DNA of 33,739 nucleotides. It comes from a virus. The notes beneath the pieces are model-generated. The model had not been told where the DNA came from. It made no database searches and was given only the letters and a program-made list of their open reading frames with translations. Where the stretch lies: the IMG/VR virus record IMGVR_UViG_3300016457_000480, positions 1-33,739 of that record; one strand, written 5' to 3'. Made by a program: the position numbers and the translations under genes. Shown here piece by piece: positions 9,517 through 29,981 of this stretch (its first letter is position 1; each line of letters starts with the position of its first letter).

Positions 9517-10902
9517 TCACTTAATTTCATAGTCTTCCATTTCATGCCAAGGTCGATCTACTGCGCAAAGTTCCGCATCTATTTTAAGTGGAACAATAAT
9601 CCACTTCCAAGCTTCAGGAAGTTCTTTACAAGCAATATGTTGGGTGAGTTTAAAGAATTCTTTTTTTTCCTCTGGTTGAATATCTGCTACGACTTCATCA
9701 TGAATCTGACCAATTGGCACGGTATCCCATTGTTCTGTTCGGTCTGTTAATTCAATAAAAGTCCATAGTAAACAGTGGAATGCAGTACCTTGAATTGGAT
9801 AATTAATAACTTGTTTTTTATTCATTATTCCACTACAACGAAATCCCGTTAGTAACTTTACATATCCCCTTTTTTCGTAATATTTCCATTGTTTCTTTTT
9901 CCATTTAGTATATGTTCTATATCGCACATTCCAAAAATCATCTTCTACATTTTTTACATGCTTAATAAATTTGTCTGAATTTTTAATATTTCCATGTTTA
10001 TCTAATCGAATAAGCCCTTTATCTTGTAAGTGAATCAACGCAGGAGTGCCATCTTTTAATGTGCCAAGTTTCGCCCATTGCAATAAATTTGGCACACAAT
10101 TACCATAATAATCACCATAGAATTCTGGAAAGATAAATCCATTTTTTCCGCCCTGTCGTAAATTAGCTTCTCCTGGATTATGTTTATCAAGACTATCCAA
10201 CATATAAATTTCTACAGCCATATCAAGATGCATATCGCCATGAACAGTATCATAAATTAGACGTTCATCTTGCGTATAACATCCGGCAATTCGTACTTCC
10301 ATAGATGAGAAATCAGCTGAACCTAATTGATGCCCTAATCTTGGATATATTGCGGAACGTACTATCTTCTTTATTTCTTTGTCCCGTTTGGGTTGATTAT
10401 GAAAATTCGGAGAATTTGAGCTGGAGCGAAAAGTTCTTACCAAATGTAATGGAAAAAATGGGTGTAACGTACCATTTACTTGTTCTCGTAAAAGCCCTTT
10501 TAAATAAGTATCTCTTGCTTTCATGTACTTCCGAACTTTTAAGAGATGCTTAATTTCTGGGAAATCGTTTGCTAAAACACTTAATACTTCATTATCTACA
10601 GAATTATTTCCCTTGCTGGTTAACTTTGATGATTTTAATTTCATCGTTTTAAAGAGTATCTTTCTGATTTGAAGATCTGAATTTATATTGCGTTTCACGC
10701 CGTATATTTTATTCCATAACTTTCCTGTTTTTGTTTTCCAAAAACGATTATGATGTTTATCAATTATACCAGTCAGTTCTTCAATCTTTTGTTTACAATA
10801 ATTGATATTTATCCGCATACCATTTTGACTGGCTTTCTGTAAAGCTAATTCACCTCTATGCATTAACATGTATGCATCTTTAGTTGTTGTTGTTATTTGC
10901 AT
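9517..10902 (-). CDS. Family A DNA polymerase, polymerase domain only
   Basis: Synthesises phage DNA. The 461-residue product contains the palm/fingers motifs of PolA: TFRSSSNSPNFHNQPKR near 157-173, motif A SADFSSMEVRI at 195-205, motif B region R249...K253-NGFIFPEFYG, and motif C QIHDEVVAD at 399-407. An insertion of about 80 residues rich in Lys and Trp (DKGLIRLDKHGNIKNSDKFI onward) lies between motifs B and C. There is no exonuclease domain: the 3'-5' exonuclease is encoded at 14596-15864 and the 5'-3' exonuclease at 1130-1981. It overlaps the upstream 86-aa gene by 10 bases. Confidence 0.92.
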   Translation of the reverse strand: MQITTTTKDAYMLMHRGELALQKASQNGMRININYCKQKIEELTGIIDKHHNRFWKTKTGKLWNKIYGVKRNINSDLQIRKILFKTMKLKSSKLTSKGNNSVDNEVLSVLANDFPEIKHLLKVRKYMKARDTYLKGLLREQVNGTLHPFFPLHLVRTFRSSSNSPNFHNQPKRDKEIKKIVRSAIYPRLGHQLGSADFSSMEVRIAGCYTQDERLIYDTVHGDMHLDMAVEIYMLDSLDKHNPGEANLRQGGKNGFIFPEFYGDYYGNCVPNLLQWAKLGTLKDGTPALIHLQDKGLIRLDKHGNIKNSDKFIKHVKNVEDDFWNVRYRTYTKWKKKQWKYYEKRGYVKLLTGFRCSGIMNKKQVINYPIQGTAFHCLLWTFIELTDRTEQWDTVPIGQIHDEVVADIQPEEKKEFFKLTQHIACKELPEAWKWIIVPLKIDAELCAVDRPWHEMEDYEIK

Positions 10903-11486: not shown

Positions 11487-13085
11487 TTATTTACTCAATG
11501 GGGTAAGATCCTCAAACATATTTGGGATAATATCCATTAATGTGTCCCATATAGTAAACGCAATGGGTCTAATTTGAGGATGGGCTTCCTTTGATCCACG
11601 CAATTTAATAAAATGTCTCCACTCTCTTAAATTCGCCGTCATTACAATTTCTGTTTTAAGACAATTTGGTAGAACTGATCTAGCAATTTGTGGAGAACAA
11701 CCTTTGTCTAAAAGGCTAAAGTAGGCATCTTCTGCATTTACACAAGCAATTCTCCATTCAACCGTTTGTTCATACGTCAAATTTGGAGGTTGAATAAAAG
11801 TACATTCGTTCCCGAACTTGTCTTTGCTATAATTACACCATCGTGTGCTATTATGCACAATAAATCCGTTTGCAACATAGTTATGATGTGGTGCCTTCAT
11901 TTCTAAATCATAAACAGGTTCCTTTCCAACTGCTGTTATTTTCGTGATTGTGTCAGGATGTGCCTTTTTCCCGATATACCATCCTCTATGTATCTTTTTA
12001 TGACAATTTATACAGAGTTTGAGCAAATTTTCTTTTTGGTTATTTTTATCATTTCCGTCTATATGACGCACTTCCAGCTTCTCAATACAACCACATAGTT
12101 CACAATGGGCCACTTCTTCTTTTTTGCGTAAGGCAATTCTGCGGGAAACCCCACCTTTCCAGTTACTGTTTTTATCTCCGTATAAATTATTATGGTGATT
12201 TCTTCGCAAAGAATCTGCTTGTGATCTGACAGAAGGATTCTCCTCTTCTTTTATTCCTTTATTCCATACTACTCTACCATTATTGTATTGTTCCAAAATA
12301 GTTTGCCTCATCTTTTCTATAGAGAAGGCAGTATGGTTTTTCGTGTATTTCTCTTTGTTTTTATCATTCATACGTTTTACGAATATTCCTAATGCTTTTA
12401 GTCTTCTTAAAACTGAAGAATAAGGGGCACTAAATGTACTCGCAATTTCTTGCGGGCTTTGTTTCTGCTGTAGATATAAATGTTTTAATTCATCATCAGG
12501 TATTTTTAATAGACAAGGACGTCCATTCACCATAATAGAATCACCAATACTTAGTTTGTTTAATGAAATAAAAGACCCGTTTGGTAATTGAAATTCATGG
12601 TTTGCGGTTGCTTTAATCCTATACCCAAGTGACGCGTGCACTTCATAAACAGGGGCAATTCCTTTGTAAAAGACAGATTGAATTTTGTTCCTTATAATAT
12701 TTCCCCTTTCATCACAGCTTCTCAAGCTAATTGTTTTATTATGCGTTTTTCCTTGGGGAGAAAAAGATCTATCAAACAATTGTTTGATAGTTTTATCTTT
12801 TCGCACTAATGTGTCTCCCGAAACACATTCCTGGGCGAAAGATGCAATCCTATGTCTTACAATTTCGTGAGTTATCCCACGGTCTGTTATTATTCGGAAA
12901 GAAGCACACGCATGCTCTAACATTGCATGATGCCCTGCTTTTCTCAATGCTTTAACAAACTTTCCTGCTGAGTCTTCCGTTATTTTGTCTTCAGATTTGT
13001 AACAAACTCTACCTGCCTTTTCTATTTGAATTTCGGGATCAATAGTACACCATAATAATTCTACACTTGGTTTTACGATTTTCAT
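11487..13085 (-). CDS. thyX: Flavin-dependent thymidylate synthase ThyX, interrupted by an intein
   Basis: ThyX makes dTMP from dUMP using FAD, NADPH and methylene-tetrahydrofolate. The N-extein (residues 1-86) holds the conserved HEIVRHRIASFAQE; the intein follows; the C-extein resumes STRWCNYSK and runs through NCLKTEIVMTANLREWRHFIKLR near the end, the other ThyX signature. Without the 326-residue intein the protein is about 206 residues, normal for ThyX. The intein splits the ThyX motif RHRxxSxxxxSxRW exactly before its second serine, so activity depends on splicing. AAAAGGAG precedes the start. Confidence 0.93.
   Translation of the reverse strand: MKIVKPSVELLWCTIDPEIQIEKAGRVCYKSEDKITEDSAGKFVKALRKAGHHAMLEHACASFRIITDRGITHEIVRHRIASFAQECVSGDTLVRKDKTIKQLFDRSFSPQGKTHNKTISLRSCDERGNIIRNKIQSVFYKGIAPVYEVHASLGYRIKATANHEFQLPNGSFISLNKLSIGDSIMVNGRPCLLKIPDDELKHLYLQQKQSPQEIASTFSAPYSSVLRRLKALGIFVKRMNDKNKEKYTKNHTAFSIEKMRQTILEQYNNGRVVWNKGIKEEENPSVRSQADSLRRNHHNNLYGDKNSNWKGGVSRRIALRKKEEVAHCELCGCIEKLEVRHIDGNDKNNQKENLLKLCINCHKKIHRGWYIGKKAHPDTITKITAVGKEPVYDLEMKAPHHNYVANGFIVHNSTRWCNYSKDKFGNECTFIQPPNLTYEQTVEWRIACVNAEDAYFSLLDKGCSPQIARSVLPNCLKTEIVMTANLREWRHFIKLRGSKEAHPQIRPIAFTIWDTLMDIIPNMFEDLTPLSK
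11850..12827 (-). other. Intein in ThyX with HNH homing endonuclease and helix-turn-helix
   Basis: The intein begins with Cys87 (CVSGDTLVRKD, splicing block A), ends GFIVHN, and the +1 residue is Ser. Block B-like YRIKATANHEFQL is present. Between the splicing blocks is a helix-turn-helix (QSPQEIASTFSAPYSSVLRRL) and an HNH nuclease with CELCGC, RHIDGNDKNN and CINCHKKIH (zinc pairs plus His-Asn-His). Length 326 residues, a full-size intein. All splice residues look intact. Confidence 0.92.
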
Positions 13086-14578: not shown

Positions 14579-14609
14579 ATTATACAAAATTCCACTTAAA
14601 AATTTAAAG
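14579..14609 (-). promoter_or_regulatory. Phage-type promoter
   Basis: CTTTAAATTTTTAAG and TATAATATAA with the common 18-bp spacing. It overlaps the last codons of the glycosylase-exonuclease gene and opens the unit that contains the small genes, thyX and polymerase. Confidence 0.76.
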
Positions 14610-15864
14610 TTTCTGCATACGAATTAAATCCCATCTGTTCCATTTGTAAAAGTGCTAATTTATATTGCCACAATGTATCATATCCACAGTAAGTAAGCAC
14701 CTCGTCCTCCCCGTATTTTTTAATAAACTCAAAAATTCTATTCACTGCATTTGCATTATTTTTTTCTACACCTTCTAAATATGGGGCAATGTGAGAATCG
14801 TAATCGCAAACCCCAAAATTCACATACGTTTGAAACTTCAATCCAGTAATTCCAGGACGATTATCAAGTATATGTGCAGCCTGCAAAGAATCCCACTTCC
14901 AATTTTTTATGATTGTTCTTAGTCGAACTTCTGCCCAAATATGTTCAAAAACCATATTATGCGCCATTTTACCAATGTGTGGGGCAATAAATAATTTTCG
15001 TATTTTATCTTTTACTTCCCTACTTTTTGGCAGCATAAACACATTACAATGATTTGGCGATGGGGCAATTGACATACAAACTAATCTATGCCCAATTGCG
15101 TGTGGCTTCAGTCCAGTCGTCTCGAAATCGATTGAAAGTAAATCTGTTGTTCTTCGTGTAAAATTTAATATATGGGATAACTCTTTTTCGTCTTTTATTA
15201 TATTGATCTGACTCTTTTTATTTTCTGGAAATGGGGCATCTAAACAATCCAACGCCCTCTTTAAGTCCTGTAAATATATTGTAATAATTGCTGGCATCTT
15301 TTCCGCCATTCGATTTACATAGGACGGGTGAAGTGCAGGACAAAGCCATGTTTTAAAGTCTTGATCTGGAATTGTCCAGCCTCTCCATTTTGTTATTCCC
15401 CCAAGATTCTTTTTCCAGCGGTGTCCAATAACAGACTTTACTGCCTCTCCACCTGCTAGAATAATCAATTTTGGTTTATATTGTTCAATCGCTTTTAGTA
15501 CTCGTTTTCTACAACAAGCAATTTCGTAGTCCGTTGGTTTTCTATTTGTACCATCTTCATCCACTGGACGACAATTCGTTGCATTCAAACTGACGCAATC
15601 TCTGAATAAATCAATTCCCAATGAAGCGAGTGAATCTTGCTTTCTTTTTCCTGCTTTCCCTTGCCAGGGCTTTCCTTTTCGATCTTCTTCTTCTCCGGGT
15701 GATTGGCCTATTATCATTATTCCCTTTTCGAATTTACCATAAGGTTTGATTTTCGGATGCAATAAATTTCGATAAAGTCCGCAAGAAGCACAAGACAATG
15801 GTTTTCCCGTCTTGTTTCCAGATGTGTCCTTAAATTTAGCTGCGTTAAAAAAGGTCTGAATCAT
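14596..15864 (-). CDS. Family 4-type uracil-DNA glycosylase fused to a DnaQ/PolA-type 3'-5' exonuclease
   Basis: Two domains in 422 residues. Residues about 20-205 are a uracil-DNA glycosylase-like domain: CASCGLY (first Fe-S cysteines, 25 and 28), GQSPGEEEDRKGKPWQGKAG (catalytic motif 1, 53-72), cysteines near 117 and 175, and CPALHPSYVNR (motif 2). Residues about 222-422 are the proofreading exonuclease: DFETTG (246-251), AHNMVFEHIW, WDSLQAAHILDN and YCGYDTLWQYKL give the DEDD-type acidic residues. The exonuclease matches the one normally in front of the PolA polymerase domain, which here lies about 4 kb away as its own gene. The fusion suggests coupling of uracil removal and proofreading. 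It starts with an ATGA overlap with the DUF1937 gene. Confidence 0.85.
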   Translation of the reverse strand: MIQTFFNAAKFKDTSGNKTGKPLSCASCGLYRNLLHPKIKPYGKFEKGIMIIGQSPGEEEDRKGKPWQGKAGKRKQDSLASLGIDLFRDCVSLNATNCRPVDEDGTNRKPTDYEIACCRKRVLKAIEQYKPKLIILAGGEAVKSVIGHRWKKNLGGITKWRGWTIPDQDFKTWLCPALHPSYVNRMAEKMPAIITIYLQDLKRALDCLDAPFPENKKSQINIIKDEKELSHILNFTRRTTDLLSIDFETTGLKPHAIGHRLVCMSIAPSPNHCNVFMLPKSREVKDKIRKLFIAPHIGKMAHNMVFEHIWAEVRLRTIIKNWKWDSLQAAHILDNRPGITGLKFQTYVNFGVCDYDSHIAPYLEGVEKNNANAVNRIFEFIKKYGEDEVLTYCGYDTLWQYKLALLQMEQMGFNSYAETLNF

Positions 15865-16190: not shown

Positions 16191-18275
16191 TTATATATTC
16201 AATTTTCTTTGTTCTTGTTTTTCAGCTTGTTTAAGATTTCGCACCATTATTCGATAATACGCTTTTTTTAATTCTATCCCAATAAATTTACGTTTCCTTC
16301 GGATTGTTTCATACCCCTCAGATCCAATACCACCGAATGGGGATAAAACAATATCTCCAGGATTTGTCCACAGTTCAAGACAACGTGCAATTACATCTAA
16401 TTGTAAAGGACAATTTTTAACAATCGCCCCTTCTGCTGTAAAAGATTCATCTTCATCGACACTAATATCCCAAACTTCTGATTTCCCTTTTTCTTCAATC
16501 TTTCTCACCTTTTTCCAGGCGCCATCTTCCCCAATCCAACCAGATTGTCGATATCCTTTTGAATTGCGAAATGCGAAAACCCAATCTTGAGAGGTATTAA
16601 CGATGCGGCCTTGAATTACACACTTTCCTTCAGGTCTTCCAGCATAAACACTTGCAACAAATCCTCTTGCCCTTTGAACTATCAACTCCATTCCAAGAAG
16701 AAGGGCGCGCGAGATCGACGAAGCAGTCCAACGATCACATTTTTTTACATAGTGCCCATCAGCAGAAAGATAACCAGACAAAAGAGATTCTGCCCCTTCT
16801 TGTGACAATGTAACAGCTTCTCCTGGAAGTTTCTTATTTGCAGCACCATTTCCACAACGATTGAGAACGTCTCTAACATCATGTCTAAGTTCCTTGAGCG
16901 CTATTTGACATGCAGTGTGTTTAGCTACATAACCAGCATGCTTTCCAAGACGTTTGATTAACGATTCAACCTCATCATAAGAGCAAGATATAAAAAATTG
17001 CCCCATTCCTCCTCGCTTCCCACTGCGGTGATGGCCTCCTCTATGTCCATCTCCAAGCCAACGTCCAACAATCCACCATTCATCAGATGTTAGAAGAGAA
17101 TTTTCTATCGGTGGCAATTTCAAATTTAGATAACCGCCTTTTGTATTGCGTGCTGGAACCCACATAGGATCATTTTTCATTGCAGAAGATTTTTCTTTAA
17201 ATGCACTCCCTTTCATTCCTGGCCATCGACCTTTTCCTATAGGGCTACGAAACCAAAACTCATGTTCAGGTGTAACCCGCAAATCAGCAACACCATGAGC
17301 ACATATTAAAATAATAGGTTTTATTCCATTGCATTTTTTCCCTGTAACAGCTCTCCATCTGCCTTTATGCGTTAATACAAAATCTCCAATTTCAATATTT
17401 TCAATTGGAACATATCCCTTTTGCCTTGTGAGAACTAACGCCCCAGAAGCCAAACATATATGTCTCTCATCATCCTTTTCACGGGCCTGTTTAATATTTA
17501 ATGTATTTCCTTGACGAATATCCATCCATACAGGGGAAGCGTATCGTTGCCATACATGATGACTATATTTATTTTTTGCTGGATTATCATTTTTCGGGTT
17601 TGATGGTTCCTCTCTTTCCCCTATGTATTCTTCAAATCCACGTCCATGCGGAATTGGTTCTGGATTGTTTCCTGGTTTTACTACCGAAATAATATAATCT
17701 GCCCCTCCTGCGCCACATCTTGTTGAATCTTTGCTGATTTGTTTATGGGCAAGTCTTAATGCTTTTGTTCTGACTGCTTCAAGCAAGGGATCTTTCCAAA
17801 TAGTAATTCTTGGCGAATGATAAATAAATCCCACTGCCTCAAACTTTCGAAGTAATTTTCCGGGGAAATCTTTTGCCCCCATATATCCGTCCCGTTCTTT
17901 CATAGCGGGAATATCAGAACAATGAAAACTCAGCACCCTTCCTGGTAATAGTACTCTATATAATTCTGGGATGAGAAATTCAAAATGATCATAGAACTCT
18001 TCATCTGTCGAATTCCCCATATCATGTGCAGATGCTGAATATGTAAAAAGAGAACTAAAAGGAGGGGAAAAGATCGAGTAATGAATTGAATTAGATGGAA
18101 TCCCTTTCAAAACTTCAACGCAATCCCCATGATAAGCGCTCCATTTATCCGTAATTACTTGATGAATAACTCTTGGGAGAAACCTATCCTTTTTTGATTT
18201 CTCGCTATATAATTTTGCTTTTGCTTCTTTTAGTCTTTGTTGATAGAATTCAATTTCGTTTATTATCTGATCCAT
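16191..18275 (-). CDS. Site-specific DNA methyltransferase (N6-adenine/N4-cytosine), interrupted by an intein
   Basis: The enzyme transfers a methyl group from S-adenosylmethionine to an exocyclic amine of DNA. Catalytic motif IV is SPPF at residues 70-73; the AdoMet motif I is SPFGGIGS near 645-652, after the intein. The order (catalytic motif first, AdoMet motif last) is that of beta-class enzymes. The N-extein ends DDERHI and the C-extein begins CPLQLDVIARCLELW, a strongly conserved stretch of this family. Without the 348-residue intein the protein is about 346 residues. It overlaps the SNF2-like helicase upstream, and no restriction endonuclease is seen, so host-restriction evasion or phage DNA marking is likely. 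Confidence 0.9.
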   Translation of the reverse strand: MDQIINEIEFYQQRLKEAKAKLYSEKSKKDRFLPRVIHQVITDKWSAYHGDCVEVLKGIPSNSIHYSIFSPPFSSLFTYSASAHDMGNSTDEEFYDHFEFLIPELYRVLLPGRVLSFHCSDIPAMKERDGYMGAKDFPGKLLRKFEAVGFIYHSPRITIWKDPLLEAVRTKALRLAHKQISKDSTRCGAGGADYIISVVKPGNNPEPIPHGRGFEEYIGEREEPSNPKNDNPAKNKYSHHVWQRYASPVWMDIRQGNTLNIKQAREKDDERHICLASGALVLTRQKGYVPIENIEIGDFVLTHKGRWRAVTGKKCNGIKPIILICAHGVADLRVTPEHEFWFRSPIGKGRWPGMKGSAFKEKSSAMKNDPMWVPARNTKGGYLNLKLPPIENSLLTSDEWWIVGRWLGDGHRGGHHRSGKRGGMGQFFISCSYDEVESLIKRLGKHAGYVAKHTACQIALKELRHDVRDVLNRCGNGAANKKLPGEAVTLSQEGAESLLSGYLSADGHYVKKCDRWTASSISRALLLGMELIVQRARGFVASVYAGRPEGKCVIQGRIVNTSQDWVFAFRNSKGYRQSGWIGEDGAWKKVRKIEEKGKSEVWDISVDEDESFTAEGAIVKNCPLQLDVIARCLELWTNPGDIVLSPFGGIGSEGYETIRRKRKFIGIELKKAYYRIMVRNLKQAEKQEQRKLNI
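16413..17456 (-). other. Intein in the DNA methyltransferase with LAGLIDADG endonuclease
   Basis: Starts Cys274 (CLASGALVLTRQKGYVPIENI), contains the block B-like segment DLRVTPEHEFWFR, and ends EGAIVKN before Cys +1. Both LAGLIDADG motifs are visible as WWIVGRWLGDGHRGG and LLSGYLSADGHY. The penultimate residue is Lys instead of the usual His; some inteins tolerate this but often splice more slowly. 348 residues. Confidence 0.9.
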
Positions 18276-21004: not shown

Positions 21005-21127
21005 TCAACTGTTTCTCTCTCTCTCTCTTGTATGATAATAACTAAGAAGTCTTGAGAAAGCATTACTATTGGTTAAAGCATCCCCTTGACTTGGTTCAAG
21101 TAGCCATGTTGCCAGATATATTCTCAT
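21005..21127 (-). CDS. Mini-ORF repeating the DpdA N-terminus, copy 1 (40 aa)
   Basis: Begins MRIYLATWLLEPSQ and contains FSRLLSYYHTRER. Its ATG overlaps the dpdA stop (TAATG), so it is translated by coupling if real. The end is an RERER run encoded by a GA repeat. Homologous only to the first 30 or so residues of DpdA. Confidence 0.52.
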   Translation of the reverse strand: MRIYLATWLLEPSQGDALTNSNAFSRLLSYYHTRERERNS

Positions 21128-22158
21128 TAGAATAATGCTTTATTTCTATTCTTGTTTTTAAATGCCCAAGGCCACTTTGGCATCGATTTTTCAAGATCCA
21201 AAAAATAAATGACGTTTAATTCGTCTCGAAGTTGATACTGATTGGATATTCCTGGTTCTTGGATAATTTCTAATGAACGTTTACTATTTTTGTCTTTTGG
21301 TTTCTTCTTCGCCCAACGCTCATTTTCTTTAAGCACGTAAGATTGTTTGACTTGTGCAAATACAGACTTTCCTAATTTATATCCTTTTTCGTGGATATAG
21401 TTCAGAACAATCTGCTTTTGTATTGGGGAAAGTGTTTCTATGTGTTTTCCAGCTTCTTTTGTGTTTGGACTTCTATTTGAAACCGAGATCTTCCAAGAAT
21501 TTTCATTGTATATCCATTGTCCATTCTTGAAACGGGGAACGTAAATAGAACCCAATCTTCCTGTTACAACCCATGAAGTAGAATCAACAGAATACCAAGG
21601 ATAACGAAACATAAGTTGAAGGGAAGTGAGACCAAATCCATGTACTTTAACTTTAGGAATTCCGTTAGAACTACAAAGATAATTAGAGAACAAATTATCT
21701 AACCACAATATTAAATTTGTAGACGAGACAGGTACCATTCCGCCTAAAGCGATATATTTATATCCCCGCTTTAAGTACCGATTTAACCACTTTACAGGCT
21801 CTCCATAATGGAAAACGGGCAATGGAGAAAGGCATGCTCTTTCCATTATCATTTGGTTCTGCCATGTTCTCCTAACGTCTTTTATCGAATCTAAATTAGC
21901 ATGCACATCAATAACATTCTGATGTTTTTTAATAAAATTAATATAATCATAAATATCAATCTCAATTCCTTGTGACCATGCGGAAAAGGCGCCTGAGTCA
22001 AGAAATAAATCTACTTTTTTGTTTTTCATGAGAATTGTCCGCCATAAATGGAATCCAAATCCTTCGTTTTTCAAATGATAGTATGAAATTAAACGAGGAT
22101 GATCTATAGCAATATCCGTTTCTTTGTCGACGCTACTGCCCGCTAAATATATTTTCAC
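21127..22158 (-). CDS. dpdA: DpdA-like DNA 7-deazaguanine transglycosylase (TGT fold)
   Basis: DpdA enzymes exchange guanine in DNA for preQ0 by a tRNA-guanine transglycosylase-like reaction. The TGT-type signatures are visible: MKIYLAG start, VDLFLDSGAFSAW (nucleophile/general acid Asp region, 54-59), DVHANLDSI, YIALGGMVP, KVHGFGLTS and YSVDSTSWV. The start is GTG, overlapping the folE stop. At 343 residues with a basic C-terminus (KKKPKDKNSK) it fits phage DpdA proteins. Its position in one operon with queD, queE, queC and folE makes a DNA rather than tRNA substrate likely. The subtype cannot be decided by eye. Confidence 0.86.
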   Translation of the reverse strand: MKIYLAGSSVDKETDIAIDHPRLISYYHLKNEGFGFHLWRTILMKNKKVDLFLDSGAFSAWSQGIEIDIYDYINFIKKHQNVIDVHANLDSIKDVRRTWQNQMIMERACLSPLPVFHYGEPVKWLNRYLKRGYKYIALGGMVPVSSTNLILWLDNLFSNYLCSSNGIPKVKVHGFGLTSLQLMFRYPWYSVDSTSWVVTGRLGSIYVPRFKNGQWIYNENSWKISVSNRSPNTKEAGKHIETLSPIQKQIVLNYIHEKGYKLGKSVFAQVKQSYVLKENERWAKKKPKDKNSKRSLEIIQEPGISNQYQLRDELNVIYFLDLEKSMPKWPWAFKNKNRNKALF

Positions 22159-23024
22159 TTAACTAATCGCATCAATTCTTGTCTTGCTGCCCTTCCAGCA
22201 GAAGTATCTTCGATAAATACGCCTTTAAGACTAGAAGTAATCATTGTGGATTGCTGCTTAGCGATTCCTCTCATTCTCATGCACATATGAACCGCCTCAA
22301 TAATACATGCGGCTCCTTGTGGACGTAGATATCGCATCAAAGTATCTGTTACTTGTTCTCCAATTCGTTCTTGTATTTGCATTCGTCGAGCAAATACTTC
22401 TAACAGTCGTGCTAATTTAGAAATTCCGATTACTCGTTTACTTGGAATATAGGCGATGTGTGCTTTACCAAAAAATGGGAGCAAATGATGTTCACACATT
22501 GAAAAGAGTTCGATATTTTTAAGAAGAACAATTTGATCACATCCATCGGAATTAAATGTAGTGAATAACTTGTCAGGAGATTGTGCGTATCCAGCAAATA
22601 GCTCGTCCCAGGAACGAACGATACGATTTGGCGTTTCTTTGAGTCCTTCTCGTTCTGGATCTTCTCCAATGTATTGAATTTGCCGAACAATGTTATCTTG
22701 TATGGAATCCATGCCTTCAGGATGGTTCTTTTCCCATGGGAAAACAATCCAAGAAGAGTCCTTCATTTTTTGTTTGTTATAAAGACAAACAAATTTGGTG
22801 TTTGGAAATCTTTTCTTATATATTTCTTGAGTACGTCCAGAATCTATTAGATCATCTAATATCACATCTGCTTTAATTGGATCGTGGGTTACTTTTGCTC
22901 GTGTTAAAAATGCTGTAGCAATCATTCCCCCCTTTGGCACTCCATAAATGGTTATATTTGGTTGATCGAACCGTGTAAGAGATTGAAAGATTTGTTCCCA
23001 TGTTATGTTCGTTGTTTTATTCAT
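22155..23024 (-). CDS. folE: Phosphoribosyltransferase-like domain fused to GTP cyclohydrolase I
   Basis: Residues about 108-289 are GTP cyclohydrolase I, first step of preQ0 synthesis: IGEDPEREGLKETPNRIVRSW, FSMCEHHLLPFFGKAHIAYIP (zinc Cys and His), VIGISKLARLLEVFARRMQIQER, and AVHMCMRMRGIAKQQSTMITSS (second zinc Cys). Residues 1-100 are not part of GTP cyclohydrolase: they hold YGVPKGGMIATAF and ADVILDDLIDSGRT, the flexible loop and PRPP-binding loop of phosphoribosyltransferases. The fusion implies a purine-salvage or nucleobase-handling step linked to the pathway. Start and stop overlap the neighbouring genes by four bases. Confidence 0.9.
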   Translation of the reverse strand: MNKTTNITWEQIFQSLTRFDQPNITIYGVPKGGMIATAFLTRAKVTHDPIKADVILDDLIDSGRTQEIYKKRFPNTKFVCLYNKQKMKDSSWIVFPWEKNHPEGMDSIQDNIVRQIQYIGEDPEREGLKETPNRIVRSWDELFAGYAQSPDKLFTTFNSDGCDQIVLLKNIELFSMCEHHLLPFFGKAHIAYIPSKRVIGISKLARLLEVFARRMQIQERIGEQVTDTLMRYLRPQGAACIIEAVHMCMRMRGIAKQQSTMITSSLKGVFIEDTSAGRAARQELMRLVK

Positions 23025-23698
23025 TTAATAATTCCCTCATATAAGATTGGGTCTTCTTTCCCGTTTAGTTTGAATGCCTCCAACCGTTCAGTACATGCAC
23101 CACAATGACCACAAGCGAGCTCTTGTTCTTTATAACACGTCCGTGTCAAGTGGTATGGCACAGAAAGATCTAATCCAATTTTGACAATATCTGTCTTGGT
23201 TAAAAATAAGAATGGAGTATAAAGGTTATTAAGTTGTCCGTCGGTTGCTAATTCGATTGTTTTTTGCACAGAGGAAATAAAGTTAGGTCGACAGTCTGGA
23301 TATATGGCATGGTCTCCTTGGTGTACGGCAATACCAATTGTAGAAATGTCTCGCGAATTTGCTATTCCAGCTAAGATAGAAAGAAATATTAAATTACGTG
23401 CCGGAACAACAGTTTGGGACATGTTTTTATCTGTATAATAACCTTCAGGAATTTCCCCTCCTGATTTGAGAAGGGTTGAGTGAAATTCTTGCGTAATTCC
23501 ACTTATATCAATATGTTTAAGGGGAACTTTGTAATATTCTGCAATTTCAATGGACGCTTTATTTTCGTATTCGTTATGTTTCGATCCATAATAAAAAGAT
23601 ATGCAGAAGGGGGTTCCCCCTTCTGCGATGCATTGCGCCAACATAGTAGCACTATCCAAACCACCGGACAGTGCTACTATGATATTATTTGACGACAT
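23021..23698 (-). CDS. queC: 7-cyano-7-deazaguanine (preQ0) synthase QueC
   Basis: Converts 7-carboxy-7-deazaguanine to preQ0 with ATP and ammonia. The ATP pyrophosphatase P-loop SGGLDS is at residues 11-16, and the zinc motif CYKEQELACGHCGACTERLEAF is near the C-terminus. Length 225 residues, normal for QueC. The ATG at 23698 follows GAGGAAAAAG and overlaps the upstream gene by 14 bases; an in-frame start 24 codons upstream is unlikely. Confidence 0.95.
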   Translation of the reverse strand: MSSNNIIVALSGGLDSATMLAQCIAEGGTPFCISFYYGSKHNEYENKASIEIAEYYKVPLKHIDISGITQEFHSTLLKSGGEIPEGYYTDKNMSQTVVPARNLIFLSILAGIANSRDISTIGIAVHQGDHAIYPDCRPNFISSVQKTIELATDGQLNNLYTPFLFLTKTDIVKIGLDLSVPYHLTRTCYKEQELACGHCGACTERLEAFKLNGKEDPILYEGIIK

Positions 23699-24440
23699 AA
23701 TATTCTTTTTCCTCATTTTTAACAATCTGAAAGTCACTCTCTTTGTTGATCCGCGTTGGAACCTGTACATTAATCGTTTTTTTCATAGAATCTGGATTTC
23801 GTTCCGGAAATCTCTTTTCCAGTTCTTGCAAAATCCCCGCTTTGGAAATCGGCCCCTTTGTTTTGATTGTCTCTTTAATTGTTTTGATTACTCCTGGTCC
23901 TTTTTCTTTTTTATCCTTTTTCACTTTTTGTGTTGGTGCCACTCCTAATATCTTTAACATTTCCGCTTTGAGCAATCTTGGTCCGGTCAGTCCAACGAAT
24001 TCATCTAACTTTTTCTGAAGAGATTCGAATTCATCTTCCGCTTCAACAATTGCCTTTAAATCAACAAGCTTTCTGGTTTTTTGAACCATGTCGATAAGCG
24101 TAATTTTAGGATCCGTGTTTTCCATCTGCGGTTCTTCCGTTGTTTCTTGTTCCGTTCCTTCCTTGGGGGCATCGTTCCCAAACAAGGGGACCCCCAATTC
24201 CCTTAGTGTATTTTGAATCCCGACAATCTTTGCCTTCCGTTCTTCCAGTTCTTCCCCTTCCAATCCAGTTTCCGTTGAAAGAGAAAGTTCCTGTTCCCCA
24301 TCTACCAACAGATTTCCAGCTTCAAGTACCTTTTCTTTTAATTCGCTAGAAGGGGCTTTAACATTAATTGGTGGATTGGGGTCCAAGAAAAAGTTGAGTT
24401 CTTGCGCCGCGATTTCAAGTGCTTTTCTTTTTACTGCCAT
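23685..24440 (-). CDS. Conserved phage protein with C-terminal winged-helix-like segment, 251 aa
   Basis: The ATG at 24440 (MAVKRKALEIAAQELNFFLDPNPPI) has an AAAGGAG site. The first part is helical and acidic, similar in layout to phage proteins that start M-x-R-K-x-L-x-x-A-x-E-L-N. A charged linker (KVKKDKKEKG) leads to a C-terminal domain, TIKTKGPISKAGILQELEKRFPERNPDSMKKTINVQV, which resembles a winged helix, possibly for DNA binding. It sits inside the deazaguanine operon, between the 127-aa gene and queC. Function unknown. Confidence 0.66.
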   Translation of the reverse strand: MAVKRKALEIAAQELNFFLDPNPPINVKAPSSELKEKVLEAGNLLVDGEQELSLSTETGLEGEELEERKAKIVGIQNTLRELGVPLFGNDAPKEGTEQETTEEPQMENTDPKITLIDMVQKTRKLVDLKAIVEAEDEFESLQKKLDEFVGLTGPRLLKAEMLKILGVAPTQKVKKDKKEKGPGVIKTIKETIKTKGPISKAGILQELEKRFPERNPDSMKKTINVQVPTRINKESDFQIVKNEEKEYYVVK

Positions 24441-24460
24441 GATTAGACTCCTTTTTGTTA

Positions 24461-24844
24461 TTAACAATGTTGTTTTTCTGGGTTACCACGAAGGTCGTCC
24501 CCAAATTTATTAGAAAATCCAAATCCTGTTAAATGACTTAATTGATCTGCTTGAAGAATTTCGTTAAAAATTCTTGACAATACTCCTTTTCTGTTTTCAG
24601 GAAGTGTTTTAATCCTAATTAGAGAAATGGAAATAAATCTTGTAAATTGTCCGGAATTCTTGTATTTTTTTCTATCAAGTTTTCTTTCTTCACATAATTC
24701 TCGTACCATTTCATGTGAGGAAATGTAGAATTTTTGCAGACCATCCAATGACCAATACTTCAAATCTCGTGGGATTGTAAAAATTGCCGCGAGTACTACC
24801 TTTGGCGATTCGTCAATTAATGTTACTCCATTTATTTTCAACAT
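24461..24844 (-). CDS. Hypothetical protein, 127 aa
   Basis: First gene after the promoter at 24894-24924, with an AAGGGAATA site. The sequence contains VVLAAIFTIPRDLKYWSLDGLQKFYISSHEMVRELCEERKLDRKK, which reads as a small helical domain, and ends HLTGFGFSNKFGDDLRGNPEKQHC. No family recognised. Confidence 0.6.
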   Translation of the reverse strand: MLKINGVTLIDESPKVVLAAIFTIPRDLKYWSLDGLQKFYISSHEMVRELCEERKLDRKKYKNSGQFTRFISISLIRIKTLPENRKGVLSRIFNEILQADQLSHLTGFGFSNKFGDDLRGNPEKQHC

Positions 24845-24893
24845 CTTTTTATTCCCTTAAAATATCATTCAATTTTTTAACTTATCTACTTAT

Positions 24894-24924
24894 ATTATAC
24901 TAAATCACACTCAAAATTTAAAGG
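24894..24924 (-). promoter_or_regulatory. Phage-type promoter (17-bp variant)
   Basis: CTTTAAATTTTGAG and TATAATATAAG, the only copy with a 17-bp instead of 18-bp gap between TTTAAA and TATAAT. It lies just downstream of queE and gives the queC-folE-dpdA part of the cluster its own start. Confidence 0.72.
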
Positions 24925-24929
24925 AAAAT

Positions 24930-26501
24930 TCAACTTAATTTCAAAAATTTATGTAATTGAACATTAAATGTAATTTTGTGTATTATCGCAGGGAAGTTAA
25001 TTTCAAACGTGGTAATCGCCTGTTTCACCTGTTCTCCCGACTCTACGGACAAAGCATATCTCAACCAATTACTGCGGAGAATTTCTAATTTCCTTATTTT
25101 TGCGAGAGCAAATTTCAAATCATCGTTCGTTTTGAGTACGAATTTAATCCATGAATTTCTTGGACTTTGAACAAATTTGGTATCATTTATCATGAACTTG
25201 TCCATTTCTGAACTTGGCGTTTTGTAATCAAGGACCAGAGGAATATCTAACGGACAAATTTGACTTCCGTTCGTTTCAATTTGGAGAATACAATCTTTTT
25301 CATATTTAAGATGGTGAACAAGCTCACGAAGTTCAACGACCGATTGAAGTAAGGGTTCTCCTCCAGTTAGAACCACATTTTCATATTGTGGAATCTTTTG
25401 CGTTATCGCAAACACGCTCATTTCTTTCCCATTACCTAGACTTTGCACATGAGGTGTATCACAATTATGTACCCACATATAATCAATTAAATAACTGTTA
25501 TAAGGGAAGCAAGATAAATTATATACTTTCAATTTTGGTGGTCGTATAGAAGGTGATATATCGTATCGATTTATTTGTTTAATTTGTTGAACTCTGAATC
25601 CATTTTGGACTTGTAATAGCTCTTTTCCATCTTTCCTGTTTCCATTCCAAAAGTTGAAACCTACTTCATGTACTTTACCATGACATGAGTGGCAAAGAAT
25701 CTGTAAATTGGAAAGAGCATCGTCTTTTGGATTCCCATTTTTGTGGTGGACATTAAGATTTTTAATAGAAGAACAAAGTTCACAAACATGTAGCCCTTGT
25801 CTCACTTCTTGTTTGAGAACAGTGCAATTCTTTTTATTGATTGATTTCCCCCAATTTGGATTTTTCTGCCCTTTTTTTGATTTAGATATTAACTCTTTTG
25901 TACGCCTTCGGGTTTCTGGAAGCATTAAAGACCATGTATCCTTATAAATTCCTTGTTTCTTTTTCTGTTGTATTGTTAAAGATAGGGAAATTCCCATTTG
26001 TGCATAATCAGTATTGTTCGCACTCTTTCTAGCTACTTCAGGATCTTTCATAGGATTTCGAAATCCGCGCTTTGAAAAAGATATCTTATTTTGCGGTGTT
26101 CCATGCAATATCACATTCCCAACGCATAAATCACACGCTTTTATCAATCCTTTGGTCGTGAAAAAAGGATGTTCTCCTGTAACAAAATAAAGGTGGTCTT
26201 CTATTTTTATTTCGTACCAATTATCTACTTCTCTTGTTGTTACATTGATCACAGTCGTTTGAACAAGATTTCCGTGCGAGTCAAAGGTCATCAAATCATC
26301 TCCAACAACCACTTTTGGTAATTGTTTATTCGGATTCTTTGCAAGAACTATTCTTGGGATTCTTCTTCCTGATTTAACTCCAAAACACCACGCACAATTT
26401 AAATTACATCCCTGAAATCGAACAAAAGTAGTTATTGTTCCTTGTGGAATAATTCCCACTTCTCCACTTATTGATCGAAAGATTTCATTTACCTGCATCA
26501 T
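24930..26501 (-). CDS. queE: 7-carboxy-7-deazaguanine synthase QueE, interrupted by an intein
   Basis: Radical SAM enzyme that contracts 6-carboxytetrahydropterin to 7-carboxy-7-deazaguanine. The N-extein carries EIFRSISGEVGIIPQG and the first two cluster cysteines in GCNLNCAW; after the intein the C-extein resumes CDTPHVQ and then VLTGGEPLLQ, ILQIETNGS and LVLDYKTP, all QueE hallmarks. Removing the 308-residue intein leaves about 215 residues, the normal size. The third cysteine of the CX3CX2C motif is the +1 residue of the intein. It overlaps the queD gene by 17 bases. Confidence 0.94.
   Translation of the reverse strand: MMQVNEIFRSISGEVGIIPQGTITTFVRFQGCNLNCAWCFGVKSGRRIPRIVLAKNPNKQLPKVVVGDDLMTFDSHGNLVQTTVINVTTREVDNWYEIKIEDHLYFVTGEHPFFTTKGLIKACDLCVGNVILHGTPQNKISFSKRGFRNPMKDPEVARKSANNTDYAQMGISLSLTIQQKKKQGIYKDTWSLMLPETRRRTKELISKSKKGQKNPNWGKSINKKNCTVLKQEVRQGLHVCELCSSIKNLNVHHKNGNPKDDALSNLQILCHSCHGKVHEVGFNFWNGNRKDGKELLQVQNGFRVQQIKQINRYDISPSIRPPKLKVYNLSCFPYNSYLIDYMWVHNCDTPHVQSLGNGKEMSVFAITQKIPQYENVVLTGGEPLLQSVVELRELVHHLKYEKDCILQIETNGSQICPLDIPLVLDYKTPSSEMDKFMINDTKFVQSPRNSWIKFVLKTNDDLKFALAKIRKLEILRSNWLRYALSVESGEQVKQAITTFEINFPAIIHKITFNVQLHKFLKLS
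25464..26387 (-). other. Intein in QueE with HNH homing endonuclease
   Basis: Starts at Cys39 (CFGVKSGRRIPR), has the block B-like segment YFVTGEHPFFT and ends YMWVHN, followed by Cys +1. The endonuclease part has CELCSSIKNLNVHHKNGNPKDD and CHSCHGKVH, an HNH fold with two zinc cysteine pairs, and a preceding GQKNPNWGKS element. The nuclease resembles that of the ThyX intein. 308 residues; all splicing residues present. Confidence 0.92.
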
Positions 26502-26901
26502 TTATTCTCCATTCCGCCCATGAATTTGGACCTTCTGATATACGAATTCGAGTTACGTCTACAGGAGAGTTTGCTAATTTCCTAATTAGGTTACATAGAA
26601 AAAAATGAACTATATTTTCTACTGTGGGTTGTTCATATGAAAAAGCGTCGAGTTCGTTTAGGTATTGATGATCTAATTGATTTATCAATGACTGAACAAG
26701 CTGTTTGATTTTGGTGAAATCAATAATCATGTCCGGCCATTTGGTCCATTCATTATCTCTAAATGATTTGGATGTAATTTTTCTCTGAAACTCAATTTCC
26801 ATCTCCGCGTTATGTCCATGAACTCTTGCACATGGGCCATCATAGTTTGGTAAATGATGGGCATAACAAAAGTTGAACCTTTTTGTTACTGATAAACTCA
26901 T
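26485..26901 (-). CDS. queD: 6-carboxy-5,6,7,8-tetrahydropterin synthase QueD
   Basis: Second step of preQ0 synthesis, acting on the FolE product dihydroneopterin triphosphate. The zinc histidines and catalytic Cys lie in FCYAHHLPNYDGPCARVHGHNAEME (residues 11-35), and LDHQYLNEL and ISEGPNSWAEWR are the other family signatures. 138 residues is normal length. A TTGGAGAA site precedes the ATG. First gene of the deazaguanine cluster in transcription order, below the regulatory region at 26924-27022. Confidence 0.93.
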   Translation of the reverse strand: MSLSVTKRFNFCYAHHLPNYDGPCARVHGHNAEMEIEFQRKITSKSFRDNEWTKWPDMIIDFTKIKQLVQSLINQLDHQYLNELDAFSYEQPTVENIVHFFLCNLIRKLANSPVDVTRIRISEGPNSWAEWRINDAGK

Positions 26902-27564: not shown

Positions 27565-27596
27565 AATTTTAATCTCCTATTTATTGCATTTATCGT

Positions 27597-27628
27597 ATTA
27601 TACAAAATCGTTGCTGAAAATTTAAAGG
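27597..27628 (-). promoter_or_regulatory. Phage-type promoter
   Basis: CTTTAAATTTTCAGC and TATAATACGAT with 18-bp spacing. It starts the unit of small regulatory genes, immediately below the terminator of the repeat-array operon. Confidence 0.76.
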
Positions 27629-27629
27629 G

Positions 27630-27658
27630 GATGAGCACCTCTATTAAAGGCGCCCACC
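27630..27658 (-). terminator. Probable terminator of the repeat-array operon
   Basis: In minus-strand RNA an 11-bp stem forms (GGTGGGCGCCT with AGGTGCTCATC, three G-U pairs, 7-base loop), which would be interrupted on the plus strand, so it belongs to the minus transcript. It lies six bases after the last repeat block. The tail is CCCTTTAAATTTT rather than a pure U run, and overlaps the next promoter. Confidence 0.55.
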
Positions 27659-27663
27659 AGATT

Positions 27664-27745
27664 TAGTTCACTCTCAGTCCTTGGATTTCTCTCAGCAAAT
27701 AGTTCACTCACGCCATATAGGTTTCTCACTTCCGTTAGTACTTAC
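27664..27745 (-). repeat. TIGR-like array 1 (2 units, 4 spacers)
   Basis: Five 10-bp blocks every 18 bp: three of the TAGTTCACTC type (27664, 27700, 27736) alternate with two of the TGGGTTTCTC type (27682 as TGGATTTCTC, 27718 as TAGGTTTCTC), separated by unique 8-bp spacers. In the transcript they read GAGTGAACTA and GAGAAACCCA. The block nearest the tasA stop codon is degenerate (TAGTACTTAC). The array lies just after tasA and before the terminator. Confidence 0.88.
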
Positions 27746-27749
27746 TCAC

Positions 27750-28691
27750 TTATTTTCCACTATGCACATGTCCTAACTTTTCTTCCGAATAAGGTGGCCG
27801 TACAGGTAATCCATCAATCGTTCTCCAATTTACATATAAGTCCGTAAGGAATTGTTTCATCATCTTCCTTATTGCGGCGGCACTCCTATGCGCTTTAGTA
27901 CAATCCTTCCAAGGTTTATACTCTATTTTACCACCGGCTTTCATTTCACGAGTAACTTTCTCGCTAATGTCATATACACCAAAGCGGCCAGCTAAATCAG
28001 GACGTTTCTTCATTTCTGCTTGATCTTTTCGGTACTTTTCCGGGACGTAGAAATTGTAGTAAATCTTTCCGTATTCGGAACCAACTGCTTTGAGAAACGC
28101 ACACGCCACCGTTCCATATAATGCTGTTCGCAATCTTTTATTATATGGACGTAAGAAACCAGGGGTTTGCTTATCCCCTCTTATCTCAGTGTTTGTTAGA
28201 ACAACATAGGAAATACTATTAACGCCATTCTTTTTACTATGTATTTCCTCAATAATTTCTCCCATTTCATTTTTATACTTTCCTTTTTCAACCCGCTTCT
28301 TTCCTATAACCATGCTCGGATTGTAACCTGCGTATTGCCACATTTTAGAAACGGTGGTTGCTTTTTCAATATCAAATTCGGCTAGACACCATCCAGCTCC
28401 TATTGTGCCGATTCCCTTTACATTTTTCAACCATTCATTCCATATAGGAAAGTTCTTCAGACATTCTTTTATCATGTCTTCAATTACGCCTTCCTGTTCT
28501 TTGGCATTCTGCGAGATCAGTTCAAGATTTTTCACATCTTTAGGAAGGATTGTTATATCGTGTAAGATCCCGCCTTTATCCTGTCCATTTGCCTTTTTTC
28601 CTCTTCGATTGTCCACAGTTTTCCTCATGTCCTGAAAAGACATTCTTTGTCTAACATACATTTTCAATGCGATTTGTAATGGTGTTAACAT
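27750..28691 (-). CDS. tasA: TasA-like Nop-domain protein (TIGR-associated; related to IS110 C-terminal domain)
   Basis: Tas proteins bind guide RNAs of TIGR arrays through a Nop domain related to box C/D snoRNP proteins and IS110 transposases. Here the helix-hairpin-helix core is VKGIGTIGAGWCLAEF (91-106) followed by SKMWQYAGYNP (115-125), then NKRLRTALYGTVACAFLKA (184-202), the pattern annotated as Transposase_20 in IS110 elements. A helical stretch (52-88) precedes it as in Nop coiled-coils. The conserved tail FLTDLYVNWRTIDGLPVRPPYSEEKLGH is also seen. No RuvC-like DEDD domain, no HNH and no catalytic serine module are present, so it is the nuclease-less form. Repeat arrays lie on both sides in the same operon. 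AAGGAG site before ATG. Function assignment is by homology pattern and context. Confidence 0.82.
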   Translation of the reverse strand: MLTPLQIALKMYVRQRMSFQDMRKTVDNRRGKKANGQDKGGILHDITILPKDVKNLELISQNAKEQEGVIEDMIKECLKNFPIWNEWLKNVKGIGTIGAGWCLAEFDIEKATTVSKMWQYAGYNPSMVIGKKRVEKGKYKNEMGEIIEEIHSKKNGVNSISYVVLTNTEIRGDKQTPGFLRPYNKRLRTALYGTVACAFLKAVGSEYGKIYYNFYVPEKYRKDQAEMKKRPDLAGRFGVYDISEKVTREMKAGGKIEYKPWKDCTKAHRSAAAIRKMMKQFLTDLYVNWRTIDGLPVRPPYSEEKLGHVHSGK

Positions 28692-28747
28692 TGTATAGCT
28701 CCTTTTCTTAGTTAGGGGTTAATGGATAGTTAATAGGTTCCTGTTTG

Positions 28748-28901
28748 TGACTCACTCATCTATTATGGGTTTCTCAGTTAATGTAGTTCACTCATTCTGC
28801 CTGGGTTTCTCACAAGGTTTAGTTCACTCAAACACCATGGATTTCTCTGAGTATTTAGTTCACTCACGGTAGATGGTTTTCTCGTGCCAGCTAGTATTTA
28901 T
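28748..28901 (-). repeat. TIGR-like array 2 (4 units, 8 spacers)
   Basis: Nine 10-bp blocks at exact 18-bp steps between the ParB-like gene and tasA. Odd blocks are TAGTTCACTC type (28748 degenerate, 28784, 28820, 28856, 28892 degenerate), even blocks TGGGTTTCTC type (28766, 28802, 28838, 28874, with third- or fourth-base variants). All eight 8-bp spacers differ. The first block in transcription order, next to the parB-like stop, reads ATAAATACTA, similar to the equivalent block of array 1. Confidence 0.9.
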
Positions 28902-28906
28902 TCATA

Positions 28907-29641
28907 TCATGCAGCGGCTTTCATCCGCTTTGCAAATTCCTTTTCCCATACTGCTGATTTCTTCTTGAACAGTTGCAAAGCCTCCATATTATCATTGGTG
29001 TATGCGACACAATCATTGTCATGCCAACGGCAACATTCAAAGAGCTTTTGCCGATAATCCGCACTTCGATCAAGTTTTAAATGTTCTTTGTATTGTACAG
29101 GATCTAGTGTTATTTCTTGTCCAATCTCTTTTGCCTTTCTAACTTCTGTTTCAAGTCCACGTTTTGCTGGGAATCTTTTTTCAATTACATTTCCCTGTTT
29201 TACGGATACTACTTTTATGTCTCCTGCTCTCCAGCAAGTGAGACGGTTTTCAGGAATATTGAATATTTCTGCAATTTCTTTATCTGACATTCCTGTCGTA
29301 ACCAGTTCATCAGCTATAAGTTTCCTGGAAATGCCGGTCAATGGATTTCCGCAAGTTGTGTTTTCAAGAGTGAATTGCTTTAGAATTTCTTGCCAATTCT
29401 TATATCTTCCAGTATTTACTTCGGTTTGATAATCAAGTGAATATTCTGCAAGCATTGCGGAGTATCGGTGATTGCCACTAACAATTTTATTGGTCTTTTC
29501 ATCAATTGTTATGAGTGGCATATTTGCCCCTACACGATATGCCTGCCGATACCTGCTCACGAATGCGGAATTCACTGGTCGAAGTTCCGTTAATCTTTTG
29601 TCAATCTGAATGTCTTTCAATGCGATTTTCTTTGACTTCAT
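28907..29641 (-). CDS. ParB-like nuclease-domain protein with helix-turn-helix
   Basis: The N-terminal domain shows the ParB/Srx fold signature IVSGNHRYSAM (GNHR at 56-59), with an N-terminal lead ALKDIQIDKRLTELRPV. Residues about 115-140 form a helix-turn-helix (GMSDKEIAEIFNIPENRLTCWRAG). A C-terminal domain with FECCRWHDNDCVAYTNDN follows. ParB-family proteins bind DNA and hydrolyse CTP, or act as nucleases or transcription factors in phages. Being flanked by arrays 2 and 3 in one transcript suggests a role with the guide RNA system, but this could be incidental. AAGGAG before the ATG. Confidence 0.78.
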   Translation of the reverse strand: MKSKKIALKDIQIDKRLTELRPVNSAFVSRYRQAYRVGANMPLITIDEKTNKIVSGNHRYSAMLAEYSLDYQTEVNTGRYKNWQEILKQFTLENTTCGNPLTGISRKLIADELVTTGMSDKEIAEIFNIPENRLTCWRAGDIKVVSVKQGNVIEKRFPAKRGLETEVRKAKEIGQEITLDPVQYKEHLKLDRSADYRQKLFECCRWHDNDCVAYTNDNMEALQLFKKKSAVWEKEFAKRMKAAA

Positions 29642-29691
29642 TTTTTTCTCCTTATCTTATTTTGTTTTTGTTTGATTTCCTGTTTAAAAAA

Positions 29692-29918
29692 TAAAACACT
29701 CGGACTTGATGGGCTTCTCGGTTCACCTAGTTCACTCCTGACGTTTGGGTTTCTCGCGGAACATAGTTCACTCACCTTCCTTGGGTTTCTCACAGTTTAC
29801 AGTTCACTCTTTGACCCTGGGTTTCTCGCAAATCTTAGTTCACTCTGGTTTTTTTGGGTGCCTCAAATCGCATGGTGAACTCGACATCTGTGGGTTTCTC
29901 TTATCTCATAGTTCACTT
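29692..29918 (-). repeat. TIGR-like array 3 (6 units, 12 spacers)
   Basis: Thirteen 10-bp blocks, TAGTTCACTC type alternating with TGGGTTTCTC type, each followed by a unique 8-bp spacer (one spacer, 29846-29854, is 9 bp). Seven blocks are of the first type and six of the second, so it begins and ends with the first type. This is the promoter-proximal array: transcription from 29950-29981 enters it 30 bases downstream, with no gene before it. Confidence 0.9.
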
Positions 29919-29949
29919 ATTTCAATTCCTCCTTTTTTCTATTTATTGT

Positions 29950-29981
29950 ATTATACAAATTAGCGCCATAAAATTTAAAGA
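29950..29981 (-). promoter_or_regulatory. Phage-type promoter of the TIGR-like operon
   Basis: CTTTAAATTTTATGG and TATAATACAATA with 18-bp spacing. The transcript leader contains an AAGGAGGAATTG ribosome-site-like sequence but no start codon follows; instead the first repeat block begins. Thus this promoter directly makes array RNA. Confidence 0.78.

What the first reader, a model, noticed from the sequence alone, without database searches (positions are those of the whole stretch)
27630..29981. A phage TIGR-Tas-like RNA-guided locus: one operon interleaving three guide arrays with a TasA-like and a ParB-like gene
Seen in the sequence: a promoter, then array 3, a ParB-like gene, array 2, a Nop/IS110-like HhH protein, array 1 and a hairpin terminator, all on one strand. 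The arrays have a 36-bp period of two different 10-bp blocks, each followed by a unique 8-bp spacer. Established knowledge: TIGR-Tas systems consist of tandem interspaced guide RNA arrays processed to 36-nt tigRNAs with two short spacers, plus a Tas protein with a Nop domain, sometimes fused to RuvC (TasR) or HNH (TasH). Here no nuclease domain is present, so this is a TasA type whose role is not obvious. Splitting the array over three intergenic gaps with a second gene inside is an arrangement I have not seen described.
Basis: partly seen in the sequence, partly recalled or inferred. Interest (0 to 1): 0.97.

Follow-up and report, generated by a model that had tools for sequence, protein, structure and literature searches.

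The report
Phage TIGR-TasA operon with ParB gene
This phage fragment carries a complete copy of a recently described RNA-guided DNA-targeting system (TIGR-Tas, the nuclease-free TasA kind) in one operon with a ParB-like gene; it is a real and good example, but its kind and its split-array layout were already described in 2025, and what it targets is still unknown.

Summary
On the minus strand, two different 10-nt repeats alternate with 8-nt spacers in three intergenic gaps around two genes (about 12 guide units; no such unit in 100 shuffles). The 313-aa protein passes the curated cut-off of NCBIfam's TIGR-Tas model; its predicted fold best matches TasH, then TasR, then IS110-family recombinases; it has no HNH or RuvC domain, so it is a TasA. 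The 244-aa protein has a ParB fold. The ParB link clusters in one well-supported TasA clade and survives swaps of gene order. None of 874 guides has an exact match in its own contig, and matches on other contigs are not convincingly above controls, so targets are elsewhere or unsampled. ParB-bearing contigs show no ParA, so this is not an ordinary partition cassette. Most likely it binds DNA in trans without cutting, with ParB recruited to the target; the ParB step is inference. New member of a known kind.

The parts
29950..29979 (-). promoter-like site TTTAAA-18-TATAAT upstream of array I
   Evidence: 10 of 12 matches; not above chance for the region; a diverged copy lies at 27597-27626
29697..29918 (-). 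TIGR array I: 6 units, starts with edge AAGTGAACTA, ends with truncated edge GAGTG
28907..29641 (-). tasParB, 244 aa, ParB-like protein (ParB/Srx-type domain, HTH region, long C-terminal helix)
28753..28901 (-). TIGR array II: 4 units, begins 5 nt after the tasParB stop codon, ends with truncated edge GAGTG
27750..28691 (-). tasA, 313 aa, Nop/IS110-type RNA-binding protein without a nuclease domain
27656..27745 (-). TIGR array III: 2 units plus one spacer A, begins 4 nt after the tasA stop codon
27630..27658 (-). 13-bp hairpin closing array III (possible terminator, no proper T-run)

Best explanation
A TIGR-TasA-TasParB operon of a tailed phage. One minus-strand transcript would carry three dual-repeat arrays and two genes. 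The arrays would be cut within the edge repeats into about twelve 36-nt tigRNAs, each with two 8-nt spacers. A TasA dimer would bind one tigRNA and open a 16-bp DNA site, spacer A pairing with one strand and spacer B with the other. TasA has no nuclease, so the outcome is binding, not cutting. TasParB, a ParB-fold protein with an HTH region, would be recruited to or loaded at that site and help block or silence the bound DNA, which is most likely foreign DNA or the host chromosome, since the guides do not match the phage's own contig. Shown: the anatomy, the family, the lack of a nuclease, the conserved ParB link, and the lack of exact self-targets. Inferred from TasR, TasH and FpTasA work: processing and two-strand targeting. 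Inferred only: the role of TasParB and the identity of the target.
For: Array statistics. NCBIfam NF052498 TIGR_Tas at 122.2 bits against a cut-off of 100. Profile hits to TasH 21kl (E 9.7e-27) and TasR 9mty (2.5e-23). The predicted TasA fold matches TasH 9w04 (6e-10), TasR, then IS621/ISCro4. The predicted TasParB fold (pLDDT 93) matches ParB, Noc and KorB. ParB sits beside TasA in 31 IMG/VR loci, three of them near-copies, clusters on the TasA tree (5 changes against 18 in shuffles) and keeps its link in both gene orders (23 parB-tasA, 6 tasA-parB). No exact self-targets among 874 guides. TIGR mechanism, TasA-bound 36-nt RNAs and tasParB: PMC12045711.
Against: No RNA or binding data. No natural target was found: cross-contig matches exceed within-locus permutations only slightly, and other geometries rise too. 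The canonical ParB GERR motif reads GNHR here, so CTP-switch behaviour is not assured. A conserved operon partner could instead be a regulator of the operon.
Confidence: 0.6

Rival explanations
1. The guides act on the phage's own genome, to control its genes or to place ParB on its own DNA.
For: A 2-mismatch match to unit 10 lies between array II and tasA (28720-28735, minus strand).
Against: 0 exact self-matches among 874 guides; within one mismatch 3, against 3 to 9 in mispaired or wrong-geometry controls. The unit-10 match is at chance level. Contigs are fragments, so missing parts were not searched.
Confidence: 0.1
2. TasParB is a partition protein of a phage-plasmid, and TasA with its guides is an accessory of partition.
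For: ParB fold with HTH region and long C-terminal helix; few integrases on ParB-bearing contigs (2 of 18).
Against: No ParA-type ATPase (PF13614) on any of 30 ParB-bearing contigs, while the same search rings in all 14 control genomes. No self-targets.
Confidence: 0.08
3. TasParB is a transcriptional regulator of the operon (HTH binding near its promoter) and does not take part in targeting.
For: HTH-like weak profile hits and predicted HTH helices; co-operonic in both orders.
Against: Linkage kept through order swaps and across deep TasA divergence is stronger than I would expect of a local regulator; Faure et al. model TasA and TasParB as a complex (prediction only).
Confidence: 0.15
4. TasA bends guide-matched DNA as an aid to phage integration or recombination.
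For: Suggested by Faure et al. for TasA; tyrosine integrases on 5 of 6 ParB-lacking TasA contigs first tested.
Against: No tyrosine or serine integrase in this window; only 2 of 18 larger ParB-bearing contigs have a tyrosine integrase; most other ParB-lacking contigs have none.
Confidence: 0.05
5. A decaying remnant that no longer works.
For: Unit 2 is degenerate and array III is short.
Against: Both ORFs are intact and match over full length; most repeats are within one mismatch across three arrays while the spacers all differ.
Confidence: 0.02

Closest known systems
TIGR-TasA loci with tasParB (Faure et al. 2025, PMC12045711, fig. S14)
   Same: tasA and a parB-like gene in one operon; dual-repeat arrays upstream, downstream and between; 10-nt repeats; no nuclease; often in phages.
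   Different: Edge repeat GAGTGAACTA, not the common RAGCGAGCCA; its exact edge+loop unit is absent from other IMG/VR contigs; TasA at most 52% identical to sampled relatives.
TasH of Salicola phage CGphi29 (21kl, 9w04)
   Same: Nop-type fold, best structural match; phage-encoded dual-repeat array parsed beside it.
   Different: TasH has an N-terminal HNH domain and cuts DNA; this protein lacks it; no ParB partner found there.
TasR (9mty)
   Same: Same Nop-domain family by sequence and fold.
   Different: TasR has an N-terminal RuvC nuclease; this protein does not.
IS110-family RNA-guided recombinases (IS621, ISCro4)
   Same: Shared RNA-binding fold; weak Transposase_20 hit.
   Different: No DEDD/RuvC catalytic domain; arrays of short two-spacer guides instead of one bridge RNA.
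ParB / Noc / KorB
   Same: Fold of TasParB; ParB-like G-x-x-R motif.
   Different: No ParA found on these contigs; GERR motif altered; linked to tasA and guide arrays.

Membership tests
TIGR-Tas | Array of two alternating 8-12-nt repeats separated by short spacers | tested here: met
TIGR-Tas | Arrays bounded by truncated edge repeats, followed by a terminator | tested here: inconclusive
   Arrays I and II end in GAGTG; array III ends after a spacer A in a hairpin without a clear T-run
TIGR-Tas | Nop-domain Tas protein next to the array | tested here: met
   NF052498 122.2 bits, cut-off 100; fold matches TasH and TasR
TIGR-Tas | Array processed to 36-nt tigRNAs bound by Tas | not testable with these tools
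   needs RNA sequencing
TIGR-Tas | Guides direct binding to DNA by two-strand pairing | not testable with these tools
   needs a binding assay; no natural target found in silico
TasA subtype | No HNH or RuvC nuclease fused to the Nop domain | tested here: met
   No such Pfam hit; N-terminus is helical and aligns to the Nop part only
TasA-TasParB operon | ParB-like gene in operon with tasA and arrays around or between | tested here: met
   definition
TasA-TasParB operon | Head-to-head TasA dimer and C-terminal TasParB dimer | not tested
   only single chains were predicted here
IS110 RNA-guided transposase | DEDD/RuvC catalytic domain and bridge RNA | tested here: not met
   NF033542 at 17.7 bits against a cut-off of 140; no catalytic domain hit
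ParABS partition system | ParA ATPase encoded with ParB | tested here: not met
   0 of 30 ParB-bearing contigs; contigs are fragments
ParABS partition system | parS sites | not tested
   no search for a shared ParB binding site was made

The most novel reading that the evidence does not exclude
TasA acts as an RNA-programmed loader of a ParB-type protein: guides choose a site on rival or host DNA, and TasParB nucleates there and spreads, silencing or marking that DNA without cutting it.
Probability: 0.22. Interest if true: 0.85.

Novelty: new member of a known kind. Interest (0 to 1): 0.36.

Why it matters
The role of nuclease-free TasA systems is an open question. This locus and the 29 further ParB-linked loci gathered here show that, within one large TasA clade, the ParB partner is the rule and not the exception (30 of 37 tree rows). 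They also make two ideas about its role less likely: guiding on the phage's own DNA, and ordinary ParAB partition. If TasParB is loaded by guides, it would be a programmable way to silence DNA without cleavage.

Tried and rejected
Natural targets: the form spA + 0-2 nt + rc(spB), derived from the TasR cleavage pattern, was searched in the window, in 24 contigs (353 guides) and in about 70 contigs (874 guides), with mispaired spacers, other geometries and within-locus permutations as controls; no convincing excess. Three IMG/VR scans with guides of this window: unit 7 gave 1 hit against 4 for the reversed order; unit 5 gave 48 hits in unrelated contexts, several in glycine/serine-rich coding stretches, so not a target. 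The exact edge+loop repeat of this window was not found elsewhere in IMG/VR. A ParB-only scan of viral contigs found nothing with the single protein and could not run with the alignment. Integrase against ParB: striking in the first 24 contigs (2 of 18 against 5 of 6), but diluted when deeper ParB-lacking clades were added, so kept only as a lead. No Rfam family or tRNA in the window.

Full report
What is there. Between 27.63 and 29.98 kb, read on the minus strand, the order is: promoter-like site, array I, a 244-aa ORF, array II, a 313-aa ORF, array III, hairpin. Arrays are built of edge GAGTGAACTA, 8-nt spacer A, loop GAGAAACCCA, 8-nt spacer B. Nine edge+loop pairs lie within three mismatches of the consensus; 100 dinucleotide shuffles of the window gave none. 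Array I has six units, array II four, array III two and a half. Unit 2 is degenerate. Arrays I and II end in a truncated edge GAGTG, as described for TIGR arrays. The promoter scan is not above chance and the end hairpin lacks a clear T-run, although it folds well.

The 313-aa protein. It passes the curated cut-off of NCBIfam NF052498 (TIGR_Tas, 122.2 against 100 bits), while the IS110 model stays far below its own. Sequence and profile searches of solved structures give TasH and TasR as the only significant hits. The AlphaFold2 model (pLDDT 85) matches TasH 9w04 at 6e-10, then TasR 9mty, then IS621 and ISCro4. No HNH or RuvC domain is found, and the aligned part corresponds to the Nop portion of TasR and TasH. 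It is therefore a TasA, although the family model's title says endonuclease.

The 244-aa protein. Family models give only weak ParB hits, but the predicted fold (pLDDT 93) matches ParB, Noc and KorB. Sixteen aligned relatives keep a G-x-x-R-x-x-A motif in the place of the ParB GERR box, here GNHR. From my own knowledge, the E and middle R of GERR matter for CTP use in canonical ParB, so CTP switching is uncertain.

Relatives. Profile-based scans of IMG/VR gave 54 TasA loci. Thirty-one carry an adjacent ParB homologue (three are near-copies of others), as does a Spirochaetaceae MAG contig, giving 29 distinct loci besides the window. On a TasA tree of 55 rows, ParB carriers cluster: 30 of 37 rows in a clade with support 99/98, five label changes against 18 in shuffles. 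Gene order is parB-tasA in 23 loci and tasA-parB in 6, and many parB-tasA pairs overlap. Arrays parsed with strong scores lie in all three gaps in L004, L005, L007 and L089, and L008 and L012 show the same with a short third array, so the split layout of this window is common. Position 1 of edge and loop agrees within a locus in 58 of 65 contigs, as expected if both repeats bind a symmetric dimer; relatedness was not corrected for.

Literature. Faure et al. 2025 (PMC12045711) describe TIGR-Tas, show 36-nt tigRNAs bound to FpTasA, TasR and TasH, and two-strand DNA targeting by TasR and TasH. [quoted passage not shown] They state that targets and TasA function are unknown. This settles novelty: a new member of a described kind.

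Targets. From the reported 8-nt 3' overhangs and the cut position I derived the target form spA + 0-2 nt + rc(spB). None of 874 guides has an exact self-match outside the arrays; within one mismatch there are 3, against 3 to 9 in controls. Matches on other TasA contigs exceed within-locus permutations at gap 0 (91 against 66.8 +/- 9.1), but wrong geometries also rise (X gap 0: 80 against 62.9 +/- 8.3; Y gap 4: 81 against 67.8 +/- 7.9), so I do not claim targets. Direct scans of IMG/VR with two guides of the window gave nothing credible.

Mechanism. Best supported: nuclease-free, tigRNA-guided DNA binding in trans, with TasParB acting at or near the bound site. Against ordinary partition: no ParA (PF13614) on 30 ParB-bearing contigs, while the search rings in all 14 control genomes. 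Against self-control: no self-targets. The ParB step, guided loading and spreading, is my inference and is given a probability of 0.22.

Surroundings. The window is a 33.7-kb virus record carrying replication genes (replication initiation protein, DnaC-like loader, DnaB-like helicase, clamp loader, DNA polymerase) and a 7-deazaguanine (queuosine-type) gene set with a DpdA-like protein, as in tailed phages. No close DNA relative was found in the phage collection with the 16-33.7 kb part. No host could be assigned.

Noticed in passing
window 21127-26901 (minus strand): A 7-deazaguanine gene set: DpdA-like/TGT protein, GTP cyclohydrolase, QueC, QueE, QueD; the phage probably modifies its DNA with a 7-deazaguanine.
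   Followed up: partly
window 11487-13085, 16191-18275 and 24930-26501 (minus strand): Intein signals inside ThyX (intein N- and C-terminal motifs, HNH), an N6/N4 DNA methylase (Hint, LAGLIDADG), and possibly QueE (Hint-like plus NUMOD3/HNH): up to three inteins in one phage fragment.
   Followed up: partly
window 14596-15864 and 9517-10902 (minus strand): A family A DNA polymerase split into two ORFs 3.7 kb apart (UDG domain plus exonuclease part, and polymerase part) that cover adjoining stretches of the same PHROG profile.
   Followed up: no
window 27566-27627 and 29919-29980: A 62-nt stretch holding the promoter-like site is repeated (73% identical) before and after the operon, so the next downstream genes may share its control.
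   Followed up: no
TasA contigs G007, G010, G016, G021, G024, G025, G036, G049: Tyrosine integrases occur on 5 of 6 first-tested ParB-lacking TasA contigs but only 2 of 18 ParB-bearing ones; adding deeper ParB-lacking clades weakens this.
   Followed up: partly
L010 4814-8543 (contig G007) and L009 (contig G006): Two tasA copies in one locus, and array blocks that look duplicated with drifted spacers (e.g. AAAAACAC/TAACGCGC against AAAGGCAC/TAACGCGC), suggesting that arrays grow by segment duplication and divergence; one guide pair is shared by G006 and G007.
   Followed up: partly
L065-L080 (genome-contig hits): TIGR arrays on MAG contigs, six of 16 from Dehalococcoidia or Dehalococcoidales bins, others in CPR bacteria, archaea and a Spirochaetaceae bin with ParB-TasA; host or mis-binned phage was not decided.
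   Followed up: no
L110 (contig G051) 2675-6475: A very long set of TIGR-like arrays (about 180 repeat blocks in five runs) beside a divergent Tas gene.
   Followed up: no
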